From Treponema primitia ZAS-2 (GTDB lineage Bacteria > Spirochaetota > Spirochaetia > Treponematales > Breznakiellaceae): a DNA stretch of 64,000 nucleotides. Within the stretch, counting starts at the first letter, position 1; the number at the start of each line of letters is the position of its first letter. The translations under genes were made by a program, and so were the position numbers. The notes beneath the pieces are model-generated. The model worked only from the letters and a program-made list of their open reading frames with translations, searched no databases and was not told the origin of the DNA. The stretch is from positions 1,116,001 through 1,180,000 of the forward strand of contig NC_015578.1 of NCBI RefSeq assembly GCF_000214375.1, read 5' to 3'. Shown here in pieces: positions 677-46,014 of this stretch.

Positions 677-705
677 AGTATAAACCTAAAAAAAAGGGGT
701 GGAAA
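677..705 (-). promoter_or_regulatory. Candidate bioD promoter, leaderless type
   Basis: On the minus strand TTTCCA, 17 bases, then TATACT, ending 8 bases before the bioD ATG. Transcription would begin at or next to the start codon. The -35 element lies inside the stem of the upstream pckG terminator. The -35 match is only 4 of 6, so this is a candidate. Confidence 0.45.
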
Positions 706-2698: not shown

Positions 2699-2716
2699 AG
2701 TGGGTGATTTTAATAT

Positions 2717-3067
2717 ATGCTATATATTATGATTATCGTGGGTATTATTGTATCCTTGGCCATGCTGGTGGTGATTATCCGGTTCGCCCTTTCCAAAAAG
2801 ACCGAAAAGCTGGTGCGCTTGGCCTCAATTATCGCCCTGGGGCTTATCGTTCTTGCAATCGTTTTCTGTTTGATCATGATCGCAGCTGGGCCTAAGGAAG
2901 TGGAAGAGGAAGTGGCCTTCACCGCCCTCCCCCCATCCACGCCGGTAGCAGTGACGAATACCGGGGCCGTGTATTTTCTTATTTTTGGGATTGTGGTGGT
3001 GCTTTTTTTGGGGTTTATTATCTTTACGGCCATGCGGGATCAGAAAAAGGGCAAAAAGAGCCTTTAG
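2717..3067 (+). CDS. Small membrane protein, unknown function
   Basis: A 116-residue protein with three predicted membrane segments (about residues 3-23, 36-57 and 85-106). A short acidic, Pro/Thr-rich stretch (EVEEEVAFTALPPSTP) separates the second and third, and the C-terminus is basic (RDQKKGKKS). I recognise no family. The gene is divergent from pckG and overlaps the end of the convergent gene at 3064 by four bases. There is no good Shine-Dalgarno before the ATG. It is likely real because the hydrophobic pattern is coherent and the opposite strand holds nothing better, but this is less certain than its neighbours. Confidence 0.6.
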   Translation: MLYIMIIVGIIVSLAMLVVIIRFALSKKTEKLVRLASIIALGLIVLAIVFCLIMIAAGPKEVEEEVAFTALPPSTPVAVTNTGAVYFLIFGIVVVLFLGFIIFTAMRDQKKGKKSL

Positions 3068-5714: not shown

Positions 5715-6983
5715 CTACAGCCCCCGATTCAACCGTGCCCAGTCTGTAAGCCTCCGGTCCAAGCTGCGTATTTCCCCCTGGTTCGCCGAGCGTATCCGGT
5801 CATGCAGGTAGGGGAGTATGACCCGCTCTTTCATGGCCATCCAGTTCCTGGGCAGGATATTCGGCGGGGTTAGGAAGGTTTCAGGGGGCATACGCCCCAG
5901 GAGGCTGGGGTAGAACTGGGGGAAGATCCGCTCCGTCACTGTGCGGAGGGCGGAAAACCCGTTGGCTATGCCGAAGCGGGTCTCGTTGAGCCGGTTGTTT
6001 TTTCCTGCCTCCAGAAACAGCCGCTGGGTCTCTTCTTTAAAAAACCATTCAGTAAAGGCTTCGGCGGCTTTTTTCGCCCGGCTGTTCCGGAAAATGCCAT
6101 AGTACACCATGTCCTCTGATAGGGGGATGGTATCCTTCCCGGCGATCCAGCGGAAATCCAGGCTTGCCCTTCGCTCCTGGGGGAGGGTGAAAAATTCTGA
6201 ACTACCCATGTGGAAGAACAGGATACGCCCGGACTGGGCAAGTTTTGCCGGGGGATCGTAAAAATATTTGAACGAAAAATCATCTTCCGCCTGTATGCTG
6301 GTATTGGCCTCCTGTATCCAGTCCTGGATAAAAGACAGGGACCCCTCCAGGGCCCGGCTGTCCCATTCCAGGGGGGAGGCTTCCCGAAAGGAGGCGCCAA
6401 AGAGGACAGCGCTTACGAAAATAAAGTCATCATTCCAGGCGGGGGAAAAGCCCATCCGGGAATAGATGCCGTTGCTTTCGATATTGTAGGTTTTTCCGAT
6501 TTCCCTGATTTCCTCCAGGGAAATTGTAAAGGGGTTGGACAGGAGTGTCCCCTTATCCCTGGAAAAGACAAGGGCGGGAATATTAAAAGCCACCGGGAGC
6601 AGGTACTGTTTTCCGTCGATATTCCCCAGGGCCAGCAGGGGAGGGTAGAATGATTCCCTTGAAATCTGGTTTTTCTTAAAAAAACTGTCCAGAGGTTGAA
6701 AAAGGTTCCTGGTGGCGGCACTTTTAAGCCAGCTTCCCACCACAATATCCGGGTAGGAGCCATCGTTATCCGTGAGCTTTTGGGCAGGGGACTCAAAATA
6801 CCGGGTTTCGATCTTATAAATATCCTGGTTGGCATTAAAATATTCGGCATATAGGGCAAATTCCGGCTTATCGGTCCATAAAACAGCCGTATTGGAGCTC
6901 TGTAATGCGCAGGAATCCAACAGATGCAGGATCAGGGTTGTGAACAAAAAGGCCGTTAATGGCGAGTGCTTGTTTTTTCTCAT
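5715..6983 (-). CDS. Extracellular solute-binding lipoprotein, family 1 (sugar type), orphan
   Basis: About 422 residues with a lipobox LLDSC near residue 27, so it is anchored outside the inner membrane. Features of family 1 binding proteins: an N-terminal strand/helix with FALYAEYFNANQ, the stretch DNDGSYPDIVVGSW where the family places its hinge aspartate, QYLLPVAFNIPALVFSRD, and a C-terminal region with AAEAFTEWFFKEETQRLFLE. These proteins deliver sugars or oligosaccharides to ABC importers, but no permease or ATPase lies nearby, so it must share one encoded elsewhere or act as a sensor. Two adjacent ATGs (6986, 6983) are possible; I choose 6983 because the -10 hexamer ends 7 bases from it. 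There is no Shine-Dalgarno. It is divergent from the gene at 7007. Confidence 0.82.
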   Translation of the reverse strand: MRKNKHSPLTAFLFTTLILHLLDSCALQSSNTAVLWTDKPEFALYAEYFNANQDIYKIETRYFESPAQKLTDNDGSYPDIVVGSWLKSAATRNLFQPLDSFFKKNQISRESFYPPLLALGNIDGKQYLLPVAFNIPALVFSRDKGTLLSNPFTISLEEIREIGKTYNIESNGIYSRMGFSPAWNDDFIFVSAVLFGASFREASPLEWDSRALEGSLSFIQDWIQEANTSIQAEDDFSFKYFYDPPAKLAQSGRILFFHMGSSEFFTLPQERRASLDFRWIAGKDTIPLSEDMVYYGIFRNSRAKKAAEAFTEWFFKEETQRLFLEAGKNNRLNETRFGIANGFSALRTVTERIFPQFYPSLLGRMPPETFLTPPNILPRNWMAMKERVILPYLHDRIRSANQGEIRSLDRRLTDWARLNRGL

Positions 6984-6998
6984 CATAGGAAGTATATT
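6970..6998 (+). promoter_or_regulatory. Candidate promoter for the gene at 7007, leaderless type
   Basis: TTGTTT, 17 bases, TATATT, ending 8 bases before the ATG at 7007. It overlaps the divergent promoter on the other strand, so the two would compete for polymerase. Confidence 0.45.
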
Positions 6999-7018
6999 GA
7001 TATATAATGCAAATTCAA
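6991..7018 (-). promoter_or_regulatory. Candidate promoter for the solute-binding lipoprotein, leaderless type
   Basis: Minus strand TTGAAT, 16 bases, TATACT, ending 7 bases before the ATG at 6983. Part of it lies within the first codons of the divergent gene. Confidence 0.5.
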
Positions 7019-7486
7019 GAACCCCGAATAATAAGGCTCATAGAACAAATCAGCGAGCATTACCGCTCAAATATTGCCAACCGTTTTATCCGGCCGGCTC
7101 TATTGCAATTACCCATAGAGAATCAGGAATGGAGCTTGATCGAGGTTTTTATGGAACGGGGGGATCAATTCCGCTTCCAGGGCTATGAATTGGATGAACT
7201 CTACCATCAGCTCGCCGCTGCCGCCAACCTGGTTTCCCTGGCCCGGACCAGCCTAGCCCCGGGCTTTCGGAACCGCCAGGGGATAGACTCTGTTAAAGGT
7301 TCCGATAAGGTGCTGCGGGATATGGCTTTGAATAACTTTTCTTCCAACCTCCGGGTCCTGGCGGATCTGCTGAACGAACTCTTTGTGCTCCTGGTAGAAG
7401 CGGATAAAGTTGCAGCCCGGGGCCGCAAACCCCTCTATGCCCAGATGCCGGAATTGAACGATTTAGGGCGGAAGCTCATTGGATAA
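7007..7486 (+). CDS. Hypothetical helical protein, 159 aa
   Basis: A soluble, mostly helical protein with no signal peptide. Visible stretches: IIRLIEQISEHYRSNIANRFIRPALL near the N-terminus (given here only as a region of about residues 8-33), ELDELYHQLAAAANLVSLA near residue 62, and LRVLADLLNELFVLLVEADKV near residue 115. I recognise no family. It lies 41 bases upstream of era on the same strand and may be cotranscribed with it; a small palindrome sits between. It is divergent from the binding-protein gene with only 23 bases between start codons. Confidence 0.68.
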   Translation: MQIQEPRIIRLIEQISEHYRSNIANRFIRPALLQLPIENQEWSLIEVFMERGDQFRFQGYELDELYHQLAAAANLVSLARTSLAPGFRNRQGIDSVKGSDKVLRDMALNNFSSNLRVLADLLNELFVLLVEADKVAARGRKPLYAQMPELNDLGRKLIG

Positions 7487-10408: not shown

Positions 10409-10437
10409 TTGACCCCCTGGCTAATTCACTCTATTAT
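10409..10437 (+). promoter_or_regulatory. Promoter for the GerMN gene, leaderless type
   Basis: TTGACC, 17 bases, TATTAT, ending 6 bases before the GTG at 10444. Near-consensus hexamers at ideal spacing; transcription would start at or within a base or two of the GTG. Confidence 0.6.
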
Positions 10438-10443
10438 TAGGGA

Positions 10444-11265
10444 GTGGCAGCTTTAAAAAACCGGAATAAAAATACTTCTCCCCCTCCGAAAAAAACGATT
10501 CAGTTTGTTTTTTGGACCCTGTTTTTCATAGTGATTATCAGTCTTTTTATCGTCAGCTGGCAGCTTATTGAATCTAATGTAAAAAAAACCGGACTTCTGG
10601 ACCGGCTCTTTAACCGGGAAGCGGCAAGGACTGAAAGCCCTTCGGAAATCCCGGTGCCCCTGGAAATTGGCCCCGGTGTACCCAGCCCCGGTCAGGCAGA
10701 AGATGGCCTGCCTATAGGCCCTACAGAACCTGCTCCCGAGCCAGCGGACGAATTTACCCTTACCGGGGATGAGGCCCCTGAGCCGCAATCGCTTACCGAA
10801 ACCAAGCCTGCCGCCCCGCCTGTGACCCCGGCGCCTCCGGCCGTACAATCCCGGGACCGGGCTCTCTACTTCATCCGGGTTGACGGGGACGGGACCATCC
10901 TGCGTACTTCGGTTAACCGTACCGTAACCTTGAGCGATTCCCCTTTGGAGGATGTGTTGCGACTTCTCCTGCAGGGTCCCACAGCGGCAGAAAAAGCCCG
11001 GGGCCTTATCACCCTGATTCCCCCAGGGACCAAATTCCTCAGGGCCGAAGTACGGGGATCCACAGTCTACATCAGTTTTAGCGAGGATTTTCAGTTCAAT
11101 ACCTATGGAGTGGAGGGTTATGTGGGCCAGCTGCGACAGGTGGTGTGGACCGCCACGGAATTTTCCAATGTCAAGGATGTGCAGATACTCATAGAAGGCC
11201 GTCGGGTTGATTATCTGGGGGAAGGAATCAACATTGGGAGCCCCCTGGACAGGGATGCGTTCTAG
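10444..11265 (+). CDS. GerMN-domain membrane-anchored protein
   Basis: A 273-residue protein with one membrane segment (about residues 20-42), a long Pro/Glu-rich periplasmic linker (residues 60-135), and a C-terminal GerMN domain (about 140-265) recognisable from SPLEDVLRLLLQGPTAAEK, LITLIPPGTKFLRAEVRG and VYISFSEDF. GerMN domains were named from spore germination protein GerM and are found in envelope proteins of many non-sporulating bacteria; they are thought to bind wall or protein ligands, and the exact role here is unknown. GTG is the first possible start because a stop codon lies two codons upstream in frame, and a GGGAG stretch sits directly against it, too close to act as a normal ribosome-binding site. 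Confidence 0.8.
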   Translation: MAALKNRNKNTSPPPKKTIQFVFWTLFFIVIISLFIVSWQLIESNVKKTGLLDRLFNREAARTESPSEIPVPLEIGPGVPSPGQAEDGLPIGPTEPAPEPADEFTLTGDEAPEPQSLTETKPAAPPVTPAPPAVQSRDRALYFIRVDGDGTILRTSVNRTVTLSDSPLEDVLRLLLQGPTAAEKARGLITLIPPGTKFLRAEVRGSTVYISFSEDFQFNTYGVEGYVGQLRQVVWTATEFSNVKDVQILIEGRRVDYLGEGINIGSPLDRDAF

Positions 11266-11268
11266 GCT

Positions 11269-12135
11269 TCAGAAAACCCGAAGCCGCCGCATGGAAAGGG
11301 CCTTGCCGGTTTCCCGGTCCATTTCCGCAATCACCCCCCGGAGTTCCGGAACCTGATCCGCCGATGGTTCAGCGCAGGCCATACGGTACAGCACCTGGGT
11401 CCGCGCCCGGTCCAGGCAAATCTTAGCATCCATGCCGATTATGCCGCCTGATACGCCGGTCATACCCAGATCCGATATGTAGCCCGTACCCCCGGGGAGC
11501 ACCTTTTCATCCGCAGTCTGTACATGGGTATGGGTACCCACCACTAGGCCTGCCCTGCCGTCCAGGTAATAACCCAGGGCTTCCTTTTCCCTGGTGGATT
11601 CTGCGTGAAAATCAACCAGTACTATGGCGGGAGACTTAAGGGACTCTTGAGTCCCAAGGGACTCTTGAGTCCCAAGGGTCTCTGGAGACCCAAGGGTCTC
11701 TGGAGACCCAAAGGTCTCTTGGATAACCGAGTCAAAGGAGCGGAAGGGGCAGTCGATGGGGGTCATCAGTTCCCGGCCCTGGAGATTTATCACCAGATAG
11801 GGGATCTCGTTTTTTCTGATCAGCACCCAGCCATGGCCCGGGGCGCCGGCGGGATAATTCAGGGGCCGCAGTATCCGTTCTTCAGTGTCCAGAACGGGCC
11901 AGAAATCCCGTTTCTCCCAGACATGGTTCCCCGAAGTAACTACATCCGCCCCGGCGGCAAGGATACGGCTCAGATTAGGGTTGGTAATACCGAAACCATC
12001 CGCGGCGTTTTCCCCGTTGACCACCACAAAATCTGCCCTCTCATCCCGGATAAGGGAAGGGAGCAGCTTTTCCAGAACATCCAGCCCCGGATTGCCCACC
12101 ACATCGCCGATCATGATTACCCTTAGTGCATCCAT
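11269..12135 (-). CDS. ymdB: YmdB-family metallophosphoesterase with in-frame repeat insertion
   Basis: Dinuclear-metal phosphoesterase of the TIGR00282 family; Bacillus YmdB hydrolyses 2',3'-cyclic nucleotides and influences RNA turnover and biofilm decisions. The product is 288 residues, about 25 longer than usual. Metal-binding motifs are complete: MIGDVVGNPG (start), VNGENAADGFG, SGNHVWEKRD, VDFHAESTREK and GTHTHVQTADE. The extra length is a tandem repeat of GSPETL and GTQESL units at about residues 142-165, encoded by four 18-base palindromic units at 11640-11711, between two conserved blocks. RNase Y, the usual partner of YmdB in RNA decay, is at 18.6 kb. No Shine-Dalgarno; a TATACT ends 7 bases before the ATG. 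Confidence 0.92.
   Translation of the reverse strand: MDALRVIMIGDVVGNPGLDVLEKLLPSLIRDERADFVVVNGENAADGFGITNPNLSRILAAGADVVTSGNHVWEKRDFWPVLDTEERILRPLNYPAGAPGHGWVLIRKNEIPYLVINLQGRELMTPIDCPFRSFDSVIQETFGSPETLGSPETLGTQESLGTQESLKSPAIVLVDFHAESTREKEALGYYLDGRAGLVVGTHTHVQTADEKVLPGGTGYISDLGMTGVSGGIIGMDAKICLDRARTQVLYRMACAEPSADQVPELRGVIAEMDRETGKALSMRRLRVF
11640..11711. repeat. Tandem array of four 18-bp palindromic units inside ymdB
   Basis: Units at 11640, 11658, 11676 and 11694, period 18. The first two are GGGACTC-TT-GAGTCCC and the last two GGGTCTC-TG-GAGACCC, each followed by AA. Each unit is itself a 7-bp-arm palindrome, and the change between unit types is compensated on both arms. Degenerate half-units flank the array. 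The period is a multiple of three, so the frame is kept. Confidence 0.92.
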
Positions 12136-12142
12136 AGGGGAA

Positions 12143-12171
12143 GTATACGGGGGAAGGGGGGATTAATCCAG
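12143..12171 (-). promoter_or_regulatory. Possible ymdB promoter, leaderless type
   Basis: Minus strand TATACT ends 7 bases before the ymdB ATG; the -35 at 17-base spacing (TGGATT) is poor. There is no Shine-Dalgarno. Confidence 0.3.
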
Positions 12172-33456: not shown

Positions 33457-33485
33457 TTGATCAATATTTTTAATTTTAATATTGT
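33457..33485 (+). promoter_or_regulatory. Candidate promoter for the MATE gene, leaderless type
   Basis: TTGATC, 17 bases, TATTGT, ending 8 bases before the ATG at 33494; no Shine-Dalgarno. Surroundings are AT-rich, so chance matches are likelier here than elsewhere. Confidence 0.35.
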
Positions 33486-33493
33486 TATTATTT

Positions 33494-34870
33494 ATGGTCA
33501 AAATTGAAAACAATCTATCCAAGGGAAACGTGCTTACCAAACTGGTACTTTTTGCGCTTCCTTTTTTGGCGTCCAACCTGGTCCAGTCCTTCTACAATGT
33601 GGCGGATATGCTCATCGTGGGGAATTTTAGCGGGACCGCAAGCATGTCCGGTGTTAATATCGGGGGACAGATAACCTTTATTTTGACCAATGTGGTTATC
33701 GGGCTCTGTATGGGGGCCACGGTGCTTATCGGCCAGTATGTGGGGGCCGGGAACCGGGTCGGCCTGGAGCGGGTTACTGCCACCATCATCACCATGCTCA
33801 TCGGGACCGCCCTGGCGATCACCGTGGTGATGCTGTTTTTTAAGGGACCGGTGCTGCGGCTCATCCGGACTCCGGCGGAATCATTTGCTGAAAGCGACCG
33901 GTACCTTACGGTGACTCTTATCGGGGCTGTATTCATCTTCGGGTACAATGCCTTGAGCGCCATACTCCGGGGCATGGGCAATTCCAAACAACCCTTCTAT
34001 TTTGTGTCCATTGCCTGCGTTACCAATGTGGTTTTGGACTTGGTTTTTGTGGCGGCTTTTCATTGGGATGCCTTTGGCGCTGCCCTGGCTACGGTGATCT
34101 CCCAAGCCCTGAGTATGTTCCTCTGTATCATTTATATGGTACGGAACAATTTTCAGTTTGACTTCAAGCTCCGGTCTTTTAAGATTTACAAGGATCAGTT
34201 GGCCCTGATTTTTAAGATAGGCCTGCCTACCTGCTTACAAAATGCGGTTACCAGCCTTTCCTTCCTGTTTCTTACAGCAATAGTGAATATAGTGGGCGGG
34301 GTCACCGCTTCTGCGGCGGTGGGAGCGGTGGGCAAATTCAACAGCTTTGCCTTTATGCCCACCATGGCCATGAGCGCCTCGATTTCTGCCATGACCGCCC
34401 AGAATATCGGGGCCGGCAAAATGGAAAGGGCAATTCAGACCTGCAAGATCGGGACAATTTTTTCGGTCTGTGTTACCTGGACCTTTTTTGTTCTGGTTCA
34501 ATTATTCCCCTCAGTCATCCTGAACGCCTTTGGCAGCGATCCGGAGATGATCCAGGACGGGATTAGCTACCTCCGCATCTTTAGCTTTGATTTTCTGTTT
34601 ATCCCCTTTATTTTTTGCATTAATGGGTTTCTTATTGGCGGCGGCCATACCATATTTACTCTGTTCAGCAGTATGCTTTCAGCGATACTGCTCCGGGTGC
34701 CTGTTTGCTACATCTTTGGTGTGGTCATCGGCTGGGGTCTTCAGGGTGTCGCCCTGGGCGGTCCTGCCGCCGCCGTTGGAGCTTTGGTTGTAACGATCAT
34801 CTACCTGGCAACCGGCAAGTGGAGAAAAATTGTGATCAGAGCCGGTAGGCCGGTTGCTGAGGAAAGCTGA
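33494..34870 (+). CDS. MATE-family efflux transporter
   Basis: 458-residue inner-membrane antiporter with about twelve membrane segments in two pseudo-symmetric halves. Family stretches: NVLTKLVLFALPFLASNLVQSFYNVADMLIVG region (residues 10-41), AILRGMGNSKQPF between the halves, and SASISAMTAQNIGAGKMERAI in the second half. Exports cationic drugs or metabolites using Na+ or H+ gradients; substrate unknown. An in-frame TTG lies four codons upstream, but ATG 33494 is preferred. Ends 7 bases before the convergent lptB. Confidence 0.92.
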   Translation: MVKIENNLSKGNVLTKLVLFALPFLASNLVQSFYNVADMLIVGNFSGTASMSGVNIGGQITFILTNVVIGLCMGATVLIGQYVGAGNRVGLERVTATIITMLIGTALAITVVMLFFKGPVLRLIRTPAESFAESDRYLTVTLIGAVFIFGYNALSAILRGMGNSKQPFYFVSIACVTNVVLDLVFVAAFHWDAFGAALATVISQALSMFLCIIYMVRNNFQFDFKLRSFKIYKDQLALIFKIGLPTCLQNAVTSLSFLFLTAIVNIVGGVTASAAVGAVGKFNSFAFMPTMAMSASISAMTAQNIGAGKMERAIQTCKIGTIFSVCVTWTFFVLVQLFPSVILNAFGSDPEMIQDGISYLRIFSFDFLFIPFIFCINGFLIGGGHTIFTLFSSMLSAILLRVPVCYIFGVVIGWGLQGVALGGPAAAVGALVVTIIYLATGKWRKIVIRAGRPVAEES

Positions 34871-37056: not shown

Positions 37057-38685
37057 CTAATTCCCTTTCGTTTTTTTGACCGCAGCGATGAAGTCCCGGA
37101 ACAGGGGGCTGGCTGCGGTGGGTTTGGACTTAAATTCCGGGTGGAATTGTACCCCCAGGCCCCAGGGGTGATCCGACCATTCTACGGCTTCCACCAAACT
37201 TTTATCCTCCGTAAAGCCTGTAAGCTGAAGCCCTGCATCGGTCATTTCCTTGCGGAAGGTATTGGCAAATTCGTAACGGTGCCGGTGGCGCTCGGAAACG
37301 GTCTTTTCTTTATAGGCCGCGAAAAACAGGGAGTTTGGTTCCGCCAGGGATATCCATTTTCCCAGCCGCATGGTGCCGCCGTAGTTCTTCACATCCACCT
37401 GATCCTCCAGGAGGCTTACCACCGGGTGCTTGGTGTCCTGGTTAAATTCCGTAGAATCCGCGTCCTCCCAGCCCAGCACATTCCGGGCCCAGTCTATCAC
37501 CATGATCTGCATCCCCAAACAAATGCCGAAGTAGGGGAGCTTGTTTTTCCGGGCCCATGCCGAAGCCTTAACCATGCCGTTGATGCCCCGCTGGCCAAAG
37601 CCTCCGGGCACCAGGATACCATCCACCCCCCCATCCGCAGCGGAAGCCCCCAGGACAGCATCGGCATCCTCGGTTTCTTCCAGTCGGGAGGAGTCGATCT
37701 TTACCAACTCCACTTCCACCCGGTTTTCCAGCCCCGCATGGAACAGGGCTTCAAACACCGACTTATAGGAGTCGTGAAGGTCCATATACTTACCCACGAT
37801 GCCGATTCGGACCTTGCCGCTCAGGCTGTTAAAACGCTCCATCATGGAGTACCAGGGTTTGAGGTTGGCGTGCCTGCTCTCTACCCCCAACTTTTTCAAT
37901 ACCACCTGATCCAGTTTCTGATCGAAAAAAACCAGGGGTACCTCATAAATTGTAGTGTCCACATTGTAGGAAGTAAAGACCGCCTCGCTTTCCACATTGG
38001 TAAAAAGGGCTATCTTCCGTCGGGTTGCCTCTTCCAGCATTACCGGGGCCCGGCAAATCAGCACATCCGGCTGAATTCCCTGTTCCTGCATAGCCTTCAC
38101 CGAGTGTTGGGTGGGTTTGGTCTTTAACTCACCCTCGCCGACCTCCGGGATCAGGGTCAGGTGGGCTGAAAGGACGTTTTCCCGGCCCAATTCATGAATA
38201 AGTTGCCGGGCTGCTTCCAGAAAGGGGATGGATTCAATATCCCCCACGGTCCCACCGATTTCCACGATCACCACATCAGTATCGGCGTCTTCCTTGGAAA
38301 CCGCCAAAATCCGATTTTTAATTTCGTCGGTTATGTGGGGGATCACCTGGACACAACGCCCCAGGTACCGGCCCTCCCGTTCCTTACGGATCACGGTTTC
38401 GTAAACCTGGCCGGTGGTGATGGAATTGGCCCGGGAAAGGGGCCCGGAGGTAAACCGGGCGTAATTTCCCAGATCCAGGTCCGTTTCCCCCCCATCGTCG
38501 GTTACATAGACCTCCCCATGCTGGTAGGGGCTCATGGTCCCAGCATCCACGTTAATATAGGGATCGCACTTGACCATCCGGACATTAAACCCCCGTCCTT
38601 CAAGCAAGGCTCCCAGGGAGGAGGCCGCGACCCCCTTACCAAGGCTTGAACACACGCCCCCGGTGACAAAAATAAACTTATTCAT
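37057..38685 (-). CDS. pyrG: CTP synthase
   Basis: Makes CTP from UTP, ATP and glutamine. 542 residues from the ATG at 38685 (MNKFIFVTGG). Synthetase domain: VTGGVCSSLGKGVAASSLG (residues 7-25), KCDPYINVDAGTMSPYQHGEVYV and EIGGTVGDIES. Glutaminase domain: the oxyanion and nucleophile region YFGICLGMQ with Cys, VPGGFGQRG, and the late His-Glu in VQFHPEFKSKP. No Shine-Dalgarno, but a good promoter whose -10 ends 8 bases before the ATG. lptC follows 23 bases after the stop and is probably cotranscribed. Confidence 0.97.
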   Translation of the reverse strand: MNKFIFVTGGVCSSLGKGVAASSLGALLEGRGFNVRMVKCDPYINVDAGTMSPYQHGEVYVTDDGGETDLDLGNYARFTSGPLSRANSITTGQVYETVIRKEREGRYLGRCVQVIPHITDEIKNRILAVSKEDADTDVVIVEIGGTVGDIESIPFLEAARQLIHELGRENVLSAHLTLIPEVGEGELKTKPTQHSVKAMQEQGIQPDVLICRAPVMLEEATRRKIALFTNVESEAVFTSYNVDTTIYEVPLVFFDQKLDQVVLKKLGVESRHANLKPWYSMMERFNSLSGKVRIGIVGKYMDLHDSYKSVFEALFHAGLENRVEVELVKIDSSRLEETEDADAVLGASAADGGVDGILVPGGFGQRGINGMVKASAWARKNKLPYFGICLGMQIMVIDWARNVLGWEDADSTEFNQDTKHPVVSLLEDQVDVKNYGGTMRLGKWISLAEPNSLFFAAYKEKTVSERHRHRYEFANTFRKEMTDAGLQLTGFTEDKSLVEAVEWSDHPWGLGVQFHPEFKSKPTAASPLFRDFIAAVKKTKGN

Positions 38686-38693
38686 GTAAACCA

Positions 38694-38722
38694 ATTATCC
38701 CGATGCGGGGGGGCTTAGTCAA
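38694..38722 (-). promoter_or_regulatory. pyrG promoter, leaderless type
   Basis: Minus strand TTGACT, 17 bases, GATAAT, ending 8 bases before the ATG at 38685. Transcription would start within one or two bases of the start codon. Confidence 0.6.
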
Positions 38723-38819
38723 CGTACTGACAAATTCCCGGTTTGCTCAAAGGGGGTTCCGCCCGGTCACTACCCCAGCAGTAAAAGCCCACATTTTACT
38801 AATATTATAAAATTGATAA

Positions 38820-38848
38820 TTGACACTATCTAGCGCAGTCCTTACTAT
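38820..38848 (+). promoter_or_regulatory. cheR promoter, leaderless type
   Basis: TTGACA, 17 bases, TACTAT, ending 7 bases before the ATG at 38856. One mismatch from full consensus; divergent from the pyrG promoter 98 bases away. Confidence 0.62.
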
Positions 38849-38855
38849 AAAGGGT

Positions 38856-39677
38856 ATGGCAGATGAAATAGTTTTGACCGATGCTGATTTTGAGCAGTAC
38901 CGAAACCTCATTTACAATGAAAGCGGTATCAATTTTACCAAGACCAATCGCTCCATTCTGGAGGGCAGGCTCAAGGAGCGGCTTCGGGGTAAGACGGGGA
39001 TCACCTTGGGTTCCTATTTTACTACCATCTCCAAAGATAAAGAGGAGCTCAAGGGCTTTCTTGATTCGGTTACCACCAATCTGACCCGGTTTTTTCGTAA
39101 TCAGGCCCAATTTGACGCTCTGGAACACCATGTTATCCCGGAATTGATGAAGATTAAGAAGCCTACAGGCAATACTACCATCAAAATCTGGAGTGCCGGC
39201 TGTTCCACCGGGGAGGAACCCTATACTATCGCCATGCTTTTGACCGAAATTCTGCCCCCGCCCTGGAAATTTGAGATCGTGGCCAGTGATATCAGCCTGA
39301 AATGCCTTATGACCGGCAAGGAGGGCTTCTACGCCGATGGTCGTATGGACGGTATCCCGGATAATTACCTGAAAAAGTACTTCGACAAGGTAACCGGAGG
39401 CTATAAGGTTAAGCCCGAGCTGATGGCTAAGATACGTTTTGATTACCATAACCTTAAAAACGATTCGGGGCAGCGCAATCTGGACATCGTATTCTGTCGG
39501 AATGTGATCATCTATTTTGATGAACAAACCCAGCTCGGGGTGGTTAACCGTTTCTGGGATTCCATGGCGTCCAAGGCCTTTCTTTTTATCGGCCATTCTG
39601 AATCCCTCTTCGGGATGAATACCAAATTCGAATTTGTTAAAACCGAGTGGGCAACCTTGTACCGGAAATTTATATAG
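38856..39677 (+). CDS. cheR: Chemotaxis protein methyltransferase CheR
   Basis: Methylates glutamates of chemoreceptors using SAM. 273 residues from the ATG at 38856. N-terminal helical domain (FEQYRNLIYNESGINF, residues 11-26; RSILEGRLKERLR), then the SAM-binding domain with IWSAGCSTGEEPYTIAM near residue 112, IVASDIS, and IVFCRNVIIYFDE with the Asn-Val-Ile-Ile signature near residue 215. cheB follows after 31 bases. An AAAGGG touches the start codon too closely to act as a normal ribosome-binding site. Confidence 0.95.
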   Translation: MADEIVLTDADFEQYRNLIYNESGINFTKTNRSILEGRLKERLRGKTGITLGSYFTTISKDKEELKGFLDSVTTNLTRFFRNQAQFDALEHHVIPELMKIKKPTGNTTIKIWSAGCSTGEEPYTIAMLLTEILPPPWKFEIVASDISLKCLMTGKEGFYADGRMDGIPDNYLKKYFDKVTGGYKVKPELMAKIRFDYHNLKNDSGQRNLDIVFCRNVIIYFDEQTQLGVVNRFWDSMASKAFLFIGHSESLFGMNTKFEFVKTEWATLYRKFI

Positions 39678-45045: not shown

Positions 45046-46014
45046 ATGAAATATTTTTTAAGAATGGGCATAGCTTTATTTGGCTTATTGTCCCTGGCGG
45101 CCTTTCTCGTTTCCCTTTTCCTGGCCCGGGATATGACCAGTTCCGCAGGAAACCTCACCGGAAGCTCCGGGGCCCTCCCTTCCCCTCTGAATTACCACTT
45201 TGCCCTTTATTTGCCGGATAACCGGAATTCCTTCTTCACCGGGATTATCCGGGGGGCGGAACAGGCTGCGGCGGAGCTGAATTTAGCGGTTTCCATCCAT
45301 TCTATTGACCCGGCCAAAAATGAGCTGGAAATGGCTTCCTATACCGGGATAGACGGGGCTGTGGTTTGCCCCTACCTGGACGACGCTCTGGCCCGGCGCC
45401 AGCTGGATAAGCTGGGGGCGCAGCAGATTCCGGTGGTGATCATCAACCACAATGTGCCCAACGATCAGCCCTGGCCCTTTATCGGGTCCAACAACTTCGA
45501 GGTAGGCCGCAGGGTAGGCCTTTCTGTGGGCGCCATCAACGAAGGGCCCATACGGCTGGCCCTGGTGTACAGCGACAAGGCGCCGGGCATATACGGGGAG
45601 CGGGAACTGATGGAGATGGGGATATCCGCCGCCTTGGGGCAAAGGCTGGCCGCCCCTATCCTGGGGCTGCGGACCAACCTGAATCCCCTGGATGCGGAGG
45701 AACTCCTGTACCGGCTTTTCAGGACCAGGCAGGACATCAATACCATCATCTTTACGGACCCGAACGATACCCTGGCGGCGGTCCAAACCTTGATCGACAT
45801 GAACCTGGTGGGTCAGGTCCAGATCATCGGTTTTGGTGATGATCCGGGGATACTGGAAAATATCCGCAAAGGCCTCATCGCCTGTAGTGTCCTGACCAAT
45901 CCTGAACGGATAGGCTACGAATCCATACGGTCCCTGTGGTCCCTGCGGAACACAGGCTATACCCCCACCTCCATTGATACGGGGATAGGGATCATAGATC
46001 GGAGCAGCCTGTGA
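45046..46014 (+). CDS. Membrane-anchored periplasmic sugar-binding sensor (XylFII-like)
   Basis: 322 residues of the LacI/RbsB-type fold. The N-terminal segment (residues 5-27) is hydrophobic with no lipobox or clear cleavage site, so it is probably an anchor. Sugar-binding features: FALYLPDNRNSFFTGIIRGAEQAAAE (near residue 50), GIDGAVVCPYLDD, NNFEVGRRVG and IIGFGDDPGILENI. It is translationally coupled (GTGA) to a histidine kinase gene, the arrangement of the XylFII-LytS/YesN three-component sensor of Clostridium, in which the binding protein switches the kinase. No Shine-Dalgarno lies within 15 bases of the ATG. Confidence 0.82.
   Translation: MKYFLRMGIALFGLLSLAAFLVSLFLARDMTSSAGNLTGSSGALPSPLNYHFALYLPDNRNSFFTGIIRGAEQAAAELNLAVSIHSIDPAKNELEMASYTGIDGAVVCPYLDDALARRQLDKLGAQQIPVVIINHNVPNDQPWPFIGSNNFEVGRRVGLSVGAINEGPIRLALVYSDKAPGIYGERELMEMGISAALGQRLAAPILGLRTNLNPLDAEELLYRLFRTRQDINTIIFTDPNDTLAAVQTLIDMNLVGQVQIIGFGDDPGILENIRKGLIACSVLTNPERIGYESIRSLWSLRNTGYTPTSIDTGIGIIDRSSL

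What the first reader, a model, noticed from the sequence alone, without database searches (positions are those of the whole stretch)
38694..38856. Recurring promoter placement suggests a set of leaderless mRNAs
Eight genes without a correctly spaced Shine-Dalgarno have a sigma-70-like -10 hexamer ending 6-8 bases before the start codon: pyrG (TTGACT-17-GATAAT, 8 bases), cheR (TTGACA-17-TACTAT, 7), GerMN at 10444 (TTGACC-17-TATTAT, 6), the gene at 7007 (TTGTTT-17-TATATT, 8), the binding lipoprotein at 6983 (TTGAAT-16-TATACT, 7), the MATE gene at 33494 (TTGATC-17-TATTGT, 8), bioD (TTTCCA-17-TATACT, 8) and, more weakly, ymdB (TATACT, 7). Genes with a clear Shine-Dalgarno have their -10 much farther upstream (rny, fusA, pckG, the M23 operon). 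Since transcription normally starts 6-8 bases after the -10, these mRNAs would begin at the AUG/GUG. The hexamers and gaps are read directly; leaderless translation is inferred.
Basis: partly seen in the sequence, partly recalled or inferred. Interest (0 to 1): 0.75.

Follow-up and report, generated by a model that had tools for sequence, protein, structure and literature searches.

The report
Genes transcribed right from start codon
In this termite-gut-type spirochaete a minority of genes, including the CTP synthase and chemotaxis methyltransferase genes of the finding, have their promoter so close that the messenger should begin at the start codon with no leader, and this layout is kept gene by gene across many related genera; leaderless genes themselves are already known in bacteria, including spirochaetes.

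Summary
TANNNT lies 6-8 bases before the start in 34 of 130 genes lacking a Shine-Dalgarno (shuffled 10.1, maximum 18) and in 5 of 477 genes with one. Among those 34, TTG falls at a 17-base spacer in 11, and at 0-2 for any other spacer. Five of seven genes tested across the family keep -35, spacer, -10 and distance to the start codon while the flanks diverge (cheR 28/30, gene 7007 16/20, pyrG 38/55, GerMN 17/24, lipoprotein 18/30). In several genera two divergent starts are only 23-67 bp apart and that space is filled by two promoters, leaving no room for leaders. The best reading is leaderless (0-2 nt leader) mRNAs. The kind is known: predicted for spirochaetes (PMC3160421) and mapped in Leptospira (PMC5243855). 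New here are the gene-by-gene conservation, the shared-box divergent leaderless promoters, and a conserved C just before the pyrG AUG. No RNA ends were measured.

The parts
38694..38699 (-). pyrG -10 element GATAAT, 8 bases before ATG
   Evidence: read directly; ATAAT kept at the same place in relatives
38717..38722 (-). pyrG -35 element TTGACT, spacer 17
   Evidence: TTGAC conserved
37057..38685 (-). pyrG, CTP synthase; start codon fixed by conserved N-terminus MNKFIFVTGGV
   Evidence: Pfam CTP_synth_N 3.9e-118; relatives align from residue 1
38820..38825 (+). cheR -35 element TTGACA, spacer 17
   Evidence: conserved in 28/30 family orthologues together with the -10
38843..38848 (+). cheR -10 element TACTAT, 7 bases before ATG
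38856..39677 (+). cheR, chemotaxis methyltransferase
   Evidence: Pfam CheR 6.1e-65
10409..10437 (+). GerMN-gene promoter TTGACC-17-TATTAT, 6 bases before GTG at 10444
   Evidence: 17/24 orthologues keep it, 11 with GTG start
10444..11265 (+). GerMN (Germane) domain protein
   Evidence: Pfam PF10646 1.6e-22
6970..6998 (+). gene-7007 promoter TTGTTT-17-TATATT, 8 bases before ATG; its -35 lies inside the divergent lipoprotein gene
   Evidence: 16/20 orthologues keep the geometry
7007..7486 (+). conserved gene of unknown function (159 aa, no Pfam match)
6991..7018 (-). lipoprotein promoter TTGAAT-16-TATACT, 7 bases before ATG at 6983; its -10 overlaps the -10 of gene 7007 by 4 bp and its -35 lies inside gene 7007
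5715..6983 (-). solute-binding lipoprotein (SBP_bac_8)
   Evidence: Pfam 2.2e-10; 18/30 orthologues with leaderless geometry
33457..33485 (+). MATE-gene promoter TTGATC-17-TATTGT, 8 bases before ATG at 33494
   Evidence: only 4/17 orthologues show the geometry
677..705 (-). bioD promoter TTTCCA-17-TATACT, 8 bases before ATG at 668
12142..12147 (-). ymdB -10-like TATACT, 6 bases before ATG at 12135; no clear -35
   Evidence: YmdB Pfam 3.5e-90; geometry in only 4/30 orthologues
2716..2721 (+). further candidate: TATGCT 7 bases before ATG at 2729
   Evidence: no -35 seen
45052..45057 (+). further candidate: TATTTT 6 bases before ATG at 45064
   Evidence: no -35 seen

Best explanation
The eight sites are members of a class of leaderless genes. 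A sigma-70-type promoter (TTGACA-17-TATAAT-like) is fixed so that RNA polymerase, which prefers to start about 7 bases past the -10 element, begins transcription at or within 2 bases of the start codon. The mRNA then has no Shine-Dalgarno and should be translated by direct binding of the ribosome to a 5'-terminal AUG (or GUG). Shown here: promoter elements, spacing, absence of a Shine-Dalgarno, statistical excess, and conservation across genera. Inferred: the actual RNA 5' ends and the leaderless mode of translation.
For: A de novo two-motif search of 607 gene starts converged in all ten runs on AGGAG 3-8 bases upstream plus a TATA-type (TATAnT) motif whose spacing peaks at 6-8. Starts chosen without promoter information: 34/130 no-SD genes against 10.1 expected and 5/477 SD genes. 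TTG at spacer 17 in 11/34, near zero elsewhere, and all 34 use ATG. With a generic promoter matrix, no-SD genes have 14 promoters at d 5-9 against 0.2 in shuffles, SD genes 2 against 1.0. Whole-genome pattern 97 against 20. Ortholog footprints with control shifts: cheR 28/30 (at most 4), pyrG 38/55 (at most 8), GerMN 17/24 (at most 2), lipoprotein 18/30 (at most 2), gene 7007 16/20 (at most 3). pyrG/cheR starts only 50-53 bp apart in several genera, both promoters overlapping in that gap. Gene 7007/lipoprotein starts 62-67 bp apart in 9 relatives with one shared palindromic -35 (TTGTCAA), and 23 bp apart in this window. Class-wide excess at d = 6 over d = 13, 886 against 162.
Against: No RNA 5' ends were available. 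d = 8 sites could give a 1-2 nt leader. MATE, ymdB and bioD lack support from relatives. A pyrimidine at -1, expected before a start on A, is only slightly commoner than in SD genes (25/34 against 282/477, p = 0.11), although it is invariant in cheR and pyrG. In several lipoprotein relatives the -10 reads TAGGAT, which could also serve as a weak Shine-Dalgarno.
Confidence: 0.9

Rival explanations
1. The hexamers are an accident of A+T-rich sequence before start codons (for example kept unstructured for ribosome access), not promoters.
For: Upstream regions are A+T-rich; TANNNT is a loose pattern (10 of 130 expected by chance).
Against: Three-fold excess over dinucleotide shuffles; -35 TTG at exactly 17 bases; TTGACA and spacing conserved across about 30 genera while the spacer sequence drifts; near absence in SD genes.
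Confidence: 0.02
2. The promoters are real but the genes mainly use another, farther upstream promoter with a long SD-less leader (S1 or 70S-scanning translation), the near promoter being minor.
For: Not excluded for genes with long upstream gaps (cheR and pyrG in this genome, 170 bp between starts).
Against: In relatives the same genes have only 23-67 bp between divergent starts, filled by the two near promoters.
Confidence: 0.05
3. The start codons are mis-assigned and translation starts downstream behind an ordinary Shine-Dalgarno.
For: Start choice is uncertain for some genes (GerMN and lipoprotein N-termini vary between species).
Against: The pyrG and cheR starts are fixed by conserved N-termini across genera; the second ATG of cheR is out of frame; start choice in the genome survey used SD information and still left the class.
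Confidence: 0.03

Closest known systems
'TA-led' (leaderless) genes predicted in 207 of 953 bacterial genomes, Zheng et al. 2011 (PMC3160421)
   Same: TANNNT about 12 bp (first T) upstream of the start, no Shine-Dalgarno, excess over dinucleotide shuffles; 6 of 18 Spirochaetes had them, 3.9% of genes on average. My excess is about 4% of sampled genes (24 of 607).
   Different: That survey does not mention Treponema or Leptospira by name in the text; here -35, spacing and gene-by-gene conservation are added.
Leaderless mRNAs of Leptospira interrogans mapped by dRNA-seq (PMC5243855)
   Same: Same phylum; about 430-450 genes with a start within 10 nt of the start codon.
   Different: Experimental there, sequence-only here; a different lineage of spirochaetes.
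Bidirectional promoters of E. coli with a shared -10 element (PMC12825309)
   Same: Divergent transcription from one short symmetric sequence; in this window the two -10s overlap by 4 bp (6993-6996).
   Different: In nine relatives the shared box is the -35 (TTGTCAA), and both transcripts would be leaderless.
pyrC start-site switching in E. coli and Salmonella (Wilson 1992, Liu and Turnbough 1994, Sorensen 1993; titles seen in the reference list of PMC5730371)
   Same: Pyrimidine gene with a C just before a purine in the start region (inference; pyrC details from memory).
   Different: There the switch controls a hairpin over the SD (from memory); here it would decide between a 0-nt and a 1-2-nt leader. 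Untested.

Membership tests
leaderless (TA-led) bacterial genes | -10-like TANNNT placed so that transcription starts at the start codon | tested here: met
   (pyrG has GATAAT)
leaderless (TA-led) bacterial genes | no Shine-Dalgarno at usable spacing | tested here: met
   class definition; relatives; ambiguous for lipoprotein relatives with TAGGAT
leaderless (TA-led) bacterial genes | excess over shuffled upstream sequence | tested here: met
   34 against 10.1 +/- 3.0
leaderless (TA-led) bacterial genes | mapped 5' end of the mRNA at the start codon | not testable with these tools
   no RNA data for this organism found in the library searched
leaderless (TA-led) bacterial genes | translation from the 5'-terminal start codon | not testable with these tools
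   needs reporter or toeprint assays
bidirectional promoter (shared element) | one symmetric element used by both directions | tested here: met
   sequence only: overlapping -10s at 6991-6998 in the window; shared -35 TTGTCAA in nine relatives
bidirectional promoter (shared element) | transcription in both directions from that element | not testable with these tools
   needs two-way reporter or in vitro transcription

The most novel reading that the evidence does not exclude
The pyrG promoter is a CTP sensor that works without any leader. The base just before the AUG is C in 43 of 45 distinct sequences (1.74 bits, against 0.04-0.22 bits at -8 to -5), and the -10 of these is exactly 8 bases away. 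Any start at -2 or -1 would then need CTP as second or first nucleotide, whereas a start at the A of AUG would not. Low CTP would shift starts to the AUG and give a truly leaderless, better translated mRNA; high CTP would add 1-2 bases and lower CTP-synthase output. Other d = 8 genes do not show this C (5 of 22).
Probability: 0.15. Interest if true: 0.8.

Novelty: new member of a known kind. Interest (0 to 1): 0.5.

Why it matters
It extends leaderless initiation to a named, deeply conserved gene set in treponeme relatives and shows the signature class-wide in Spirochaetia except one family of small genomes. Conservation of the start-to-promoter distance per gene makes it possible to ask which genes keep leaderless initiation and why. 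Divergent pairs whose whole intergenic space is two leaderless promoters are compact natural constructs for testing the mechanism, and the pyrG case offers a testable nucleotide-sensing idea. It also matters for annotation: start codons of this class can be missed by SD-based gene finders.

Tried and rejected
An SD model fitted separately to each small relative sample absorbed nearly all genes, so the model learned on this genome was applied unchanged. A restricted EM to estimate the leaderless share gave 18-21% in control windows too, so that figure was discarded and the excess count (about 4%) used. The reversed-pattern control overstates enrichment because real promoters exist only in the forward pattern, so a distance control (d = 13) was added. 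Literature searches for leaderless mRNA in Treponema found no 5'-end map. Chance A+T richness and start mis-annotation were considered and rejected as stated under the rivals.

Full report
Setting. The window is bases 1116001-1180000 of a single-contig genome of 4,059,867 bp. A relative held as G050 has the length of Breznakiella homolactica RmG30, so the family looks like the termite-gut treponeme group.

Observation. The eight promoter-start arrangements were read again from the sequence. Seven agree with the finding in hexamers and distances; ymdB is 6 bases, not 7, and has no recognisable -35. The bioD site is on the minus strand at 677-705, before an ATG at 668. The coordinates given, 38694-38856, are the region between the divergent genes pyrG (CTP synthase) and cheR (Pfam).

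More than chance. I called genes by coding score on 864 kb of the genome and chose starts using coding score, start codon and a Shine-Dalgarno model only, so that no -10 information entered. Of 607 genes, 477 had a Shine-Dalgarno and 130 had not. TANNNT lies 6, 7 or 8 bases before the start in 34 of the 130 (dinucleotide shuffles 10.1 +/- 3.0, maximum 18 in 300) and in 5 of the 477. A motif search without any seed gave the same two signals in ten of ten runs: AGGAG at 3-8 bases and a TATA-type motif (TATAnT) peaking at 6-8 bases. The -35 element is an independent check: in those 34 genes TTG stands at a 17-base spacer 11 times, at 16 once, at 18 twice, and at 0-2 for every other spacer; all 34 starts are ATG. 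With a generic sigma-70 matrix the best promoter of no-SD genes falls at 5-9 bases 14 times (shuffles 0.2), that of SD genes 2 times (shuffles 1.0), with SD-gene promoters spread from about 15 bases outwards. In the whole genome TTG-N20-TANNNT-N6-ATG occurs 97 times, the reversed pattern 20 times.

Conservation. For each gene I located the orthologous start in relatives and asked whether a -35 (4 of 6 matches to TTGACA), a 16-18 spacer and a -10 lie at 5-8 (for gene 7007, 5-9) bases; the same search at four displaced distances is the control. cheR 28 of 30 (controls up to 4), pyrG 38 of 55 (up to 8), GerMN 17 of 24 (up to 2, with GTG kept in 11), lipoprotein 18 of 30 (up to 2), MATE 4 of 17 (up to 1), ymdB 4 of 30 (up to 1); gene 7007 16 of 20 (up to 3). 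The distance is a property of the gene: 8 in every pyrG counted, 6 in 16 of 17 GerMN, 5-7 in cheR. In pyrG the spacer and the bases -8 to -5 are close to random while TTGAC, ATAAT and the distance are fixed, so this is selection, not recent common descent. In some members of the order (G020, G023) pyrG has instead an SD-like sequence and no such promoter.

No room for a leader. pyrG and cheR are divergent in all 38 loci that hold both. In several genera their start codons are only 50-53 bp apart, and the two promoters overlap in that space. Gene 7007 and the lipoprotein are divergent with 62-67 bp between starts in nine relatives, where the two -35 boxes are one palindromic TTGTCAA read on both strands. 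In this window the starts are 23 bp apart, the two -10 boxes overlap (6991-6996 and 6993-6998) and each -35 lies inside the other gene; two relatives (G003, G034) share this form.

Spread. The same position peak appears in samples of three family relatives (20 genes against about 7 expected, -35 TTG at spacer 17 in 8) and of an order relative, G020 (8 against 2.6). In the class the signature TTGAC-N18-TANNNT-N6-ATG exceeds the same promoter with ATG 13 bases away by 886 to 162, while one family (f7, 0.9-1.8 Mb genomes, probably Borrelia-like, judged from size only) shows 12 against 27, that is, no excess.

Mechanism. RNA polymerase prefers to start 7 bp downstream of the -10 element (PMC5730371), so d = 6 or 7 puts the first base at or next to the start codon and d = 8 within two bases. 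Leaderless mRNAs are read mostly by direct binding of 70S ribosomes to the 5'-terminal codon (review PMC9031893). Promoter geometry and conservation are shown; RNA ends and translation mode are inferred.

Known or new. Zheng et al. (PMC3160421) described the same signal as leaderless genes and found it in 6 of 18 spirochaete genomes (mean 3.9% of genes); dRNA-seq of Leptospira interrogans found about 430-450 such genes (PMC5243855). My excess is about 4% of sampled genes. So the kind is known. What I did not find described is the gene-by-gene conservation, the shared -35 between two leaderless promoters (the E. coli bidirectional promoters share the -10, PMC12825309), and the conserved C before the pyrG AUG (43 of 45; 5 of 22 in other d = 8 genes), which suggests, without proof, CTP-dependent choice of the start base.

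Noticed in passing
window 38686 (base before pyrG ATG) and pyrG of relatives (L043-L071, L263-L295): C directly before the pyrG AUG in 43 of 45 distinct sequences, far more conserved than neighbouring non-promoter bases.
   Followed up: partly
L353-L364, intergenic space between 7007-like gene and lipoprotein gene: One palindromic TTGTCAA serves as the -35 box for both divergent promoters in nine relatives.
   Followed up: partly
own genome C1:344929, 611536, 933216, 1675281, 2758087, 2823645: A dispersed upstream element close to TTGCACAAATTTTCCGTATTGACTATGCTATTCCCATG recurs about six times before ATG; genes behind it not identified.
   Followed up: no
genome G046 (same family): 106 hits of TTGAC-N18-TANNNT-N6-ATG against 11 at the control distance, many more than any other family member sampled.
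   Followed up: no
own genome, SD-led genes: Their -10 hexamers cluster 16-24 bases before the start, suggesting leaders only just long enough to hold the Shine-Dalgarno.
   Followed up: partly
family f7 (0.9-1.8 Mb genomes): The family of the class in which the leaderless geometry is clearly not in excess (12 against 27).
   Followed up: no
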